Shown here piece by piece: positions 1,305 to 6,331 of a stretch of 64,000 nt of DNA (position 1 is the stretch's first letter; each line of letters starts with the position of its first letter). The stretch is taken from contig CP084608.1 in assembly GCA_025917655.1 (NCBI GenBank), positions 1 through 64,000 on the forward strand. Reading direction: 5' to 3'. The notes beneath the pieces are model-generated. The model ran no database searches and was not told the origin of the DNA. It saw only the letters and a program-made list of their open reading frames with translations. Position numbers and translations under genes: made by a program. The stretch is from Chlorella sorokiniana. Taxonomy: Eukaryota; Chlorophyta; Trebouxiophyceae; Chlorellales; Chlorellaceae.

Positions 1305-4101
1305 TCACCACTGGTATTTGGCGGCAAGGAGAACCGCCTCGTCTTGCTGCGCTGCTTGATCCCAACTGAGATCTTGTTGCATGCCCCGCAGCTGCATGCA
1401 TCTGAAGGAGTCGGGATGCTGCTGGAAGGTAAGAATGGCAAAGCGCAAGGCGCTCCTAAAACCGCCCACGTCGGCACCCTCAAATGTCCATCTGCGTTGC
1501 CAAAGCATGCTGTCAGCAACTACATAAGGTGCTCACAACTGACCACGCCCTTCCCGCCAACTCACCTGTGCCGGTGTTCTCATAGGGCCTGAACGGCTTC
1601 ACGGTGTCCGCGAGCCCCCAACAGCGTGCACCACAGGCGGCGTGCCATAGGCCATGGCATACAGCTGGTTGAGCCCACAAGGCTCGAAGCGGCTGGGCAT
1701 AAGCAGCAGGTCCGCCCCTACGTTGAACATGGTTGGAGAAAGTGACTGGCTCACATGGCAAGCTAAAAAGCGGTGGAAGATTGGCACTACGATCTGGCCA
1801 CCGTACCTGCTGTGATGCGGTGTGCAAGCTTCACACTGAAGCCAACATAACTGCGGCATTGCTCTGGATGTCGGGCCTCCATATTCCTGTGGCAAGTTGA
1901 GACAGGGATGGTAACAAAGACGCATTGCCAGGGCAGCTAAAATGCAGAGGGGAATGGCATGCTATCATGCTAGTAGTTTCGGCAACAACACTTGATGAAT
2001 TGCTTGCATGGCCCACCTCAAGGCATCCTCCAAATCTGGGCGTCCGCTACCCAGCAGTACAAGCTGCACCCCCTGCGCCATCAGCCACTCGCAGTTGGCA
2101 GCTATCAAGTCCACCCCTTTTTGCTCGTCGAGACGCCCGATGAAGCCCAAAAGAGGGACAGAAGGGTTCACCGGCAGGCCCAGCTCCTGCAACCAAGGGT
2201 GGAACAACATCTTTGTGCCTTTACATGTAGAACATTTCAGGATGTGAAGGCCCTTCTTCTCTTGCAACACAATTTGCTAAAGAGCCGTTCCCACCTGCTG
2301 CAGGGCCGCCTTGCAACGAGCCTTGCCGACATCCAGGCTGTCGCAGTCATAGCGGCAATAGCCGTCGGCCGGGGACAGGTGCGGGTCTATAGACGGGTGC
2401 CACTCATTCAGATCAATGCCATTCACAACACCTACAGAAAGTGCATAAGGGCGTTTGGGGGATGTTTTGTGCACGGACAAGCCAGAATGAGCACGGCACA
2501 GGCCAAAACGATCCAATGACGCACACTGACCGCCAAACAACCAGCATCGCACCTTGCAGCTTCCATGCTTCGCGTTGCAAGATGCGGCCCAAGCCAAAAC
2601 CACCTTCCGTAGTCTGGCATTCCTCGGCATACCTGCCAAGGGCGAGGATCAGGTCAGGGACGTTGAAAGTTGACTGTGCCAAAGGCCACGAACTGGCGTC
2701 AATAAATGCTGACCAGCAGCAGGCGCTGGCGCCCAGGGTCAGAAACGCGACTGGTCAGCAGCAACACGAACTATAACAACACCCAACCACAACTTACTTG
2801 CTGGATACAGCAACGATGCGGTGAGCCGTGATTGCACCGGCCTTCAGCACGTTCATGTGTTCGCCATGCTCAGGGTCTTGTAGCCTGCATGAAACACTAA
2901 CGAGATCACGTGCAGTCCAAAGCACCTGGCCACTACCGGCAAGCCAGCCAAAACACCAGATTCGCAGACGCGGCAACCAGCGTTTCGCTGTACTAGCTCA
3001 CTTAAACAGCGCCTCGTAGCGCTGCGGCATCTCCAGCCAGCGCAGCTCATCCAGCGGCGCACGGCCCTGGTGCGCCACGTTGTGTAACACCAGCAGGCTG
3101 CGTGCAAACTGCAGCTTGCCGTGATCGCGGTAATGCGCCTGCGCAAACAAGCAAATGCTCTGCAATGAATCCACGTTCAAGGAACACAGGTGCTCAGCTA
3201 GTTGAACACTTAGGCCGCCAGGCCACCTGTAGATACACGGGCAGCAGTGCTGTGTGCCAGTCGTTGGCGATGAACAACAGGTTGGAGTCGCCATACACAC
3301 TGTCGCCGCAGGGCACGTGCCAGGGTGCCTCCAGCGCTGCCTTGGACAGCAGCGCACAGCGGAAGAGCACTTCACGCTGAGATCCGCCGTAAATTGTATC
3401 TGCAAGAAGGCAGATTCAGGCAGGGTGGGAGGGGTGACACTGGCAGCACAAGTCTGAACAGGCATGCGCAACGAACACAAAGGGGGAGGGACCCAGAGAA
3501 TGGAGGCCTTAACAACCGCAGGTCCCAATCCCAGACCAGTCCAGCTGTCATCCTTCCCAGGCATCTGTGCACCTGCCCAGGCGTGGTACGCTGGATGGTC
3601 AACGAAGACATGGTCTACGCCCTCATGAAAGGAATGGAAGAAGCCCACCTGAGATGCGCAAGGTGGGCAAATGAAATGTACAGACAATCTGACAGATGCA
3701 GGCAGTGCTTGCCATTCAGCCTTACGCCTAGCATTCCATGCTGGCCCCAAGACGCTCACCTCCTGTGCTGAATCAAAAACACGGAGGCGCAAGCGCACCC
3801 CGTCTCCCAGGCATCAGGGTAGGCACGATAGCGGGCGCCACCACCATTACCCGGTGGCCGCGTGCAGCAAGCGCCTTGGGCAGTGCCTGCATCACGTCGC
3901 CCAGGCCACCTGCGGGAATACCGCGGCAAGATTGACTTTGCAATGCTAGCCTGCAAGGCCCAATCGGTCATGCTGATGGCAAGCTGCAGCTGCAAGCGAC
4001 AGCACCTGGGCAGGCAGGCAACTGGGGCCCAGGCCGTGCCAAGCTACCTCACCCGTCTTGGAGTAGGGCGCGCACTCGGCTCCCACCATGACGATGTTCA
4101 T
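1305..4101 (-). other. SS2: Enzyme half: starch synthase II (GT5) domain
   Basis: Transfers glucose from ADP-glucose to growing amylopectin chains in the plastid. Visible GT5 landmarks in order: [17 protein letters not shown], split by an intron from [20 protein letters not shown] (the K-T-G-G-L ADP-glucose loop); [19 protein letters not shown] near 3650; [12 protein letters not shown] near 3090; the linker Ser/Lys region near 2830; [15 protein letters not shown] near 2420; [15 protein letters not shown] near 2140; [18 protein letters not shown] near 1690 (the conserved EPCGLNQ loop); and [15 protein letters not shown] near 1610. The class II assignment rests on [18 protein letters not shown] spacing and the C-terminus. 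Two one-base gaps (C run near 3834, G run near 3799) interrupt the frame in one otherwise perfectly conserved exon. Confidence 0.9.

Positions 4102-6331: not shown

What the first reader, a model, noticed from the sequence alone, without database searches (positions are those of the whole stretch)
4053..4616. A sodium/solute transporter and starch synthase II appear to be one protein
Seen: a single exon of 564 bases encodes, in one frame, the last crossover motif of a BASS transporter ([13 protein letters not shown]), a linker of about 100 residues without Met or stop, and the first strand of the GT5 starch synthase ([17 protein letters not shown]), ending in a GT donor right after KTG as the GT5 exon pattern requires. 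The upstream exons complete the transporter, the downstream ones the synthase. Known: BASS proteins are plastid-envelope or plasma-membrane carriers; starch synthases are soluble or granule-bound stromal enzymes, and I know of no such fusion. Inference: the enzyme would be tethered to an envelope membrane, coupling import to starch build-up. Other frames of the linker are also partly open, and nearby exons have one-base errors, but two compensating errors would be needed to fake frame agreement.
Basis: partly seen in the sequence, partly recalled or inferred. Interest (0 to 1): 0.82.

Follow-up and report, generated by a model that had tools for sequence, protein, structure and literature searches.

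The report
Transporter fused to starch synthase
In some Chlorella-type green algae a starch-making enzyme is built as one protein with a membrane transporter that seems to have lost its sodium-binding sites, which suggests that these algae hard-wire some starch synthesis to a membrane.

Summary
Exon 4616-4053 (minus strand) encodes, in one frame, the end of a BASS transporter, a 103-residue linker without Met or stop, and the first strand of a GT5 starch synthase. It is not a one-genome oddity. Five database proteins share the domain order: Chlorella vulgaris, C. ohadii, Micractinium tetrahymenae, Micractinium sp. CCAP 211/92 and one unnamed. The linker aligns with that of C. vulgaris only in this frame. 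The BASS halves form one clade (100/100). The genome has a separate canonical SSII.
New here: the fused BASS domain has lost sodium ligands. N115 becomes A/S/G, E260 Q and Q264 R in 6 of 6 fused proteins; the 120 unfused BASS examined keep N and Q in 120 and E in 119. Substrate-side N265 and H294 are kept; the synthase motifs are intact.
I read it as a plastid-membrane-tethered SSII on a sodium-uncoupled BASS anchor. No transcript or peptide was seen, the gene has five frame changes in this assembly, and in Parachlorella the two genes appear to be unfused neighbours, so a merged gene model remains the main rival.

The parts
5855..6331 (-). probable first exon: Arg/Ser/Ala-rich presequence (Met at 6331) and first BASS helices; the 5' limit is not determined
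   Evidence: open frame, in-frame Met 6331, donor gtgcgg
5602..5729 (-). exon 2, BASS
5358..5454 (-). exon 3, BASS first crossover (degenerate Na+ ligands); one frame change inside
5120..5223 (-). exon 4, BASS
4788..4986 (-). exon 5, BASS
4053..4616 (-). exon 6, the fusion exon: BASS TM9-10, linker, first GT5 strand up to KTG
4102..4410 (-). linker, 103 residues, conserved with C. vulgaris P0001
   Evidence: score 234 against at most 65 in 1000 shuffles
3760..3909 (-). exon 7, GT5 (GLGDV...); two frame changes inside
2017..3648 (-). exons 8-14, starch synthase: 3648-3573, 3399-3227, 3138-3002, 2884-2798, 2632-2553, 2431-2295, 2186-2017
   Evidence: Pfam and TIGR02095
1305..1886 (-). exons 15-17: 1886-1807, 1717-1566 (one frame change), about 1491-1305 (frame unclear at the junction); ends AAKYQW and a stop
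1180..1184 (-). TGTAA, candidate poly(A) signal about 120 bases after the stop. The only other one on this strand between 6500 and 900 is at 2225, inside intron 13; none in or near the linker
   Evidence: that TGTAA is the green-algal signal is recalled

Best explanation
One gene of about 17 exons encodes one polypeptide of about 1000 residues: a plastid-type presequence, a ten-helix BASS-fold membrane domain, a flexible linker (103 residues in the window, 105-151 in the homologues), and a complete SSII-type starch synthase. It most likely arose once in the Chlorella-Micractinium lineage from a duplicated BASS and a duplicated SSII. BASS and SSII seem to have been neighbours already, as they still are in Parachlorella. 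After fusion the BASS part lost sodium ligands but kept its fold and the substrate-contacting Asn265 and His294. It therefore most likely serves as a sodium-uncoupled membrane anchor, perhaps a weak carrier or sensor of a small hydroxy- or keto-acid. By the inside placement of the C-terminus in bacterial BASS proteins (recalled) the synthase would face the stroma and extend glucans next to the plastid inner envelope or thylakoid. Shown: gene structure, domain order, conservation, loss of ligands, intact synthase motifs. Inferred: a single mRNA, plastid targeting, stromal orientation, effect on starch.
Against: No transcript or peptide was available. P0001, P0003, P0004 and P0005 are, as far as their names show, gene predictions, and predictors merge neighbours: P0001 carries a 388-residue tail absent from the other five, with no Pfam match. 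In Parachlorella BASS and SSII have consecutive locus numbers and are unfused. The linkers of the five homologues do hold one to three Met codons, so the no-Met argument is the window's alone. The fused reading has five frame changes in this assembly; I found one in the canonical SSII. A search with BASS plus linker alone (40-445) returned only P0001. In the synthase tree the fused set alone has only 58/81 support against the Parachlorella protein. T112, a substrate-side residue, is changed in 5 of 6. Interdomain placement is not determined (pTM 0.58).
Confidence: 0.66

Rival explanations
1. Two adjacent genes, BASS and SSII, merged by reading through a short intergenic stretch; the published fused models are the same mistake.
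For: Unfused neighbours in Parachlorella (N2152v2_003280 and _003281, same longest-contig length) and probably on a 26,456-base JGI contig. Probable merged models exist in this set (P0001 tail; P0119 RPW8 plus SSII). The five homologous linkers contain one to three Met codons.
Against: In the window the BASS frame has no stop before GT5 and the linker has no Met, so a separate SSII would start at MNIV without a presequence. The linker is conserved as protein with C. vulgaris. All six aligned sequences read through in frame. No TGTAA in or before the linker. The genome's separate, canonical SSII has a long N-terminal part of its own.
Confidence: 0.14
2. A fused gene, but decayed in this strain (subtelomeric pseudogene), with working copies only in relatives.
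For: Five frame changes in about 2.8 kb of coding sequence, against one found in the canonical SSII; the gene ends about 0.9 kb from the telomere repeats.
Against: No stop codon in the frames read, 15 of 16 introns with exact GT-AG edges, 76% identity to C. vulgaris, and a break of the same kind at the same place in the canonical SSII of the same genome.
Confidence: 0.12
3. A real fusion in which the BASS part is still a working transporter, feeding or coupled to starch synthesis.
For: BASS fold kept; substrate-side N265 and H294, M48, and two of the sodium-site residues (Q77, T132) kept in 6 of 6.
Against: Three sodium ligands replaced in 6 of 6; a paper states that sodium sites are conserved throughout the plant BASS transporters that it discusses (PMC10645422, Discussion).
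Confidence: 0.15

Closest known systems
Starch synthase II (GT5), e.g. Chlamydomonas P0046
   Same: catalytic domain and motifs; 65% identity over the synthase half
   Different: SSII is a stromal enzyme with a disordered N-terminal part (recalled); here a ten-helix membrane domain and a linker stand in its place
Plastid BASS / bacterial PanS and ASBT sodium symporters (SLC10-like)
   Same: fold, two crossover regions, N265 and H294
   Different: N115, E260 and Q264 replaced in all six; fused to an enzyme
MFP1-PTST2-SS4 starch initiation system of Arabidopsis (PMC10801857)
   Same: starch synthase placed at a plastid membrane
   Different: there through separate proteins; here proposed in one chain, with SSII instead of SS4
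SAGA1/SAGA2 of Chlamydomonas (PMC13167743, listing with start of abstract only)
   Same: places starch in the chloroplast
   Different: starch-binding proteins of the pyrenoid, neither enzyme nor transporter fold (recalled)

Membership tests
GT5 starch/glycogen synthase, SSII type | GT5 domain over curated cut-off | tested here: met
   PF08323 190.2 bits (cut-off 22.7); TIGR02095 482.9 (328.45)
GT5 starch/glycogen synthase, SSII type | catalytic motifs KTGGL and FEPCGL | tested here: met
   6 of 6 fused
GT5 starch/glycogen synthase, SSII type | groups with SSII in a tree | tested here: inconclusive
   lies inside a 35-row set of its best hits, several named SSII or GBSS2, but no SSI, SSIII, SSIV or GBSSI row was included
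GT5 starch/glycogen synthase, SSII type | ADP-glucose glucosyltransferase activity | not testable with these tools
   -
BASS/SLC10-like fold | sequence and fold | tested here: met
BASS sodium-coupled symporters | sodium ligands N115, E260, Q264 | tested here: not met
   0 of 6 fused keep any of the three; 120, 119 and 120 of 120 unfused keep them
BASS sodium-coupled symporters | NCBIfam TIGR00841 / PanS cut-offs | tested here: not met
   151.5 of 326.3 and 136.3 of 400 bits; unfused algal P0121 and P0124 also fail, so this is weak evidence
BASS sodium-coupled symporters | transport of a substrate | not testable with these tools
   -

The most novel reading that the evidence does not exclude
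The fused BASS domain is a sodium-free sensor or carrier in which Arg264 takes the place of the Na2 ion while part of the carboxylate pocket (N265, H294) is kept. Binding of a plastid hydroxy- or keto-acid would shift the elevator and control the attached starch synthase: a transporter turned receptor that ties carbon status at a plastid membrane to glucan synthesis in one chain.
Probability: 0.17. Interest if true: 0.9.

Novelty: new variant of a known kind. Interest (0 to 1): 0.7.

Why it matters
Where starch starts, and how a synthase is held there, is an open question in plastid biology. A conserved single-chain membrane anchor on a synthase would be a natural test of the idea that placement decides where starch forms. 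The shared loss of sodium ligands gives a natural set of BASS proteins that may be freed from sodium coupling, which is testable in bacteria. It would also document a neighbour-gene pair becoming a fused gene in green algae.

Tried and rejected
Openness of the frame as evidence: rejected, since the antisense frames of the linker are partly open as well. The region search 40-445 returned only P0001; only the 7993 candidates sharing most words were scored, which may be why P0002-P0005 are missing. The single-sequence fold was useless (pLDDT 40.8). TIGR00841 and PanS cut-offs do not discriminate. The AF2 BASS domain is closer to 4n7x (titled E254A mutant, rmsd 1.6) and outward-trapped 6lh1 (1.5) than to 4n7w (3.8) or ASBT_NM (4.3-4.4); I do not build on this because no unfused BASS was folded as a control. 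Six paper searches aimed at a description of such a fusion (two searches listed nothing) showed no title or start of abstract that describes one; most subscription papers are not in that library. I could not get DNA or RNA of the homologues, so no dN/dS and no splice check outside the window. Whether P0002 stems from RNA or DNA is unknown. I could not tell whether P0001 and P0003 come from the assemblies described in PMC6972661 and PMC12516953. No fused protein named as C. variabilis, C. sorokiniana or M. conductrix was among the 120 hits listed; the other 513 were not seen.

Full report
Gene. On the minus strand of the window, 6331-1305, exons join into one reading; the stretch that I used, from 6160 on, gives 947 residues. 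The genome has 38.8 Mb in 15 contigs and the window is the start of contig C7. The gene ends about 0.9 kb from TTTAGGG repeats at the contig end. Fifteen of sixteen introns have exact GT-AG edges; the sixteenth has its AG one base off in the model. The fusion exon is 4616-4053. Pfam: SBF at 87-250, Glyco_transf_5 at 453-697 of the joined reading.

Frame changes. Five lie elsewhere in the coding sequence: exon 3, exon 7 (two), exon 16 and the exon 17 junction. The fusion exon has none that the alignment with C. vulgaris reveals. The canonical SSII gene of the same genome (C7:1.955-1.959 Mb) breaks in the same way at the equivalent point of one exon; that is the one place I looked at closely. 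I take the five as assembly errors, but five against one leaves decay possible.

Homologues. Of 633 hits, 120 were listed, and five of these carry both domains: P0001 C. vulgaris (1227 aa, a cluster of six sequences), P0002 (unnamed, 936), P0003 Micractinium tetrahymenae (1003), P0004 Micractinium sp. CCAP 211/92 (875), P0005 Chlorella ohadii (940). P0002-P0004 are 86-89% identical to one another; the other pairs of the five are 61-64%, and the window is 79% identical to P0001. In the window's frame the linker (103 residues) scores 234 against the C. vulgaris linker (105); the other five frames score 21-33; 1000 shuffles reached at most 65. Without the shared end next to GT5 the score is 192, against a maximum of 64 in 2000 shuffles. 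The linkers of P0002-P0005 have 130, 134, 117 and 151 residues and differ in sequence from the window's; the five homologous linkers hold one to three Met codons each.

Models and transcripts. The C. vulgaris 211/11P genome was annotated with RNA-seq by BRAKER1 (PMC6972661, passages) and M. tetrahymenae by BRAKER2 with RNA-seq (PMC12516953, passages). I could not tie P0001 or P0003 to these assemblies, and I saw no read across the junction.

History. In a tree of 35 synthase domains the six fused ones plus Parachlorella kessleri P0033 form a clade (99/96), next to canonical SSII of Chlorella-type algae; the fused six alone have 58/81. P0033 has a long branch. In a tree of 34 BASS domains the six fused ones form a clade (100/100), and this joins six unfused ones (Parachlorella P0121, Micractinium P0124, the window genome's own copy at C7:1.887 Mb, and P0122, P0123 and P0125 of unnamed origin) at 98/91; the root was placed at the midpoint and C. 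ohadii has a long branch. Parachlorella has BASS (N2152v2_003281) and canonical SSII (N2152v2_003280) with consecutive numbers and equal longest-contig length. JGI proteins P0125 (BASS) and P0016 (synthase) share a longest-contig length of 26,456. So the pair was probably adjacent before a copy fused.

BASS domain. Aligned with 120 unfused BASS (the best 120 of 794 hits) and ASBT_NM, the fused six show N115 to A, S or G; E260 to Q; Q264 to R, in 6 of 6 each. The unfused keep N in 120, E in 119 and Q in 120 of 120. S114 and S128 are changed in 3 of 6 each, V261 in 6 of 6, M263 in 3 of 6; T132 and Q77 are kept. N265, whose change to alanine abolished pantoate binding in ASBT_NM, and H294, which contacts pantoate there (PMC10645422, passages), are kept in 6 of 6, while T112 is changed in 5 of 6; in ASBT_NM, changes of T112 to valine or alanine raised pantoate affinity. 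This argues against sodium coupling but not against ligand binding.

Synthase domain. Of 161 columns with one letter in at least 98% of 111 unfused SSII (four of the 115 listed non-fused hits were left out as truncated or divergent), 14 differ in at least one fused protein: one only by the X at a frame change of the window, eight in C. ohadii, two in all six. Seven of eight motif patterns occur in 6 of 6; the eighth differs by one letter in C. vulgaris.

Structure. AlphaFold2 of P0003 with 54 sequences: mean pLDDT 82, pTM 0.58. Residues 65-382 match BASS transporters and about 502-1001 starch synthases; the linker is low-confidence with one long helix (415-473).

How it may work. Presequences are basic and Ser/Ala-rich (P0003 1-68: 11 R+K against 4 D+E; 90 residues from Met 6331 of the window: 13 against 1), which fits plastid import; no targeting program was at hand. 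With a C-terminus on the inner side, as in bacterial BASS (recalled), the synthase would be in the stroma. Placement of starch machinery at a plastid membrane is enough to move starch formation in Arabidopsis (PMC10801857, abstract and section 9). The fusion would do this in one chain. This last step is inference.

Noticed in passing
window 6098-6154: Inverted repeat with 27-base arms (93% complementary, 3 bases between) inside the predicted presequence of the fused gene.
   Followed up: no
window 1-370: Telomere-type CCCTAAA repeats at the contig end; the fused gene is the most terminal gene recognised here.
   Followed up: no
L046 about 4840 (G000:C7 1.955 Mb): The canonical SSII has a frame change at the same point of the equivalent exon as the fused gene, suggesting a systematic error of this assembly.
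   Followed up: partly
P0001 residues 840-1227: C. vulgaris model has a 388-residue C-terminal tail without Pfam match, absent from the other five; perhaps a merged downstream gene.
   Followed up: partly
P0119: Hibiscus sabdariffa model joins RPW8 and SSII; probably a merged prediction, a caution for fusion claims.
   Followed up: no
window about 11556-14822, minus strand: Lon-protease-like frames ([17 protein letters not shown]; recalled motifs) and an AAA match at 14370-14822 with two stops inside.
   Followed up: no
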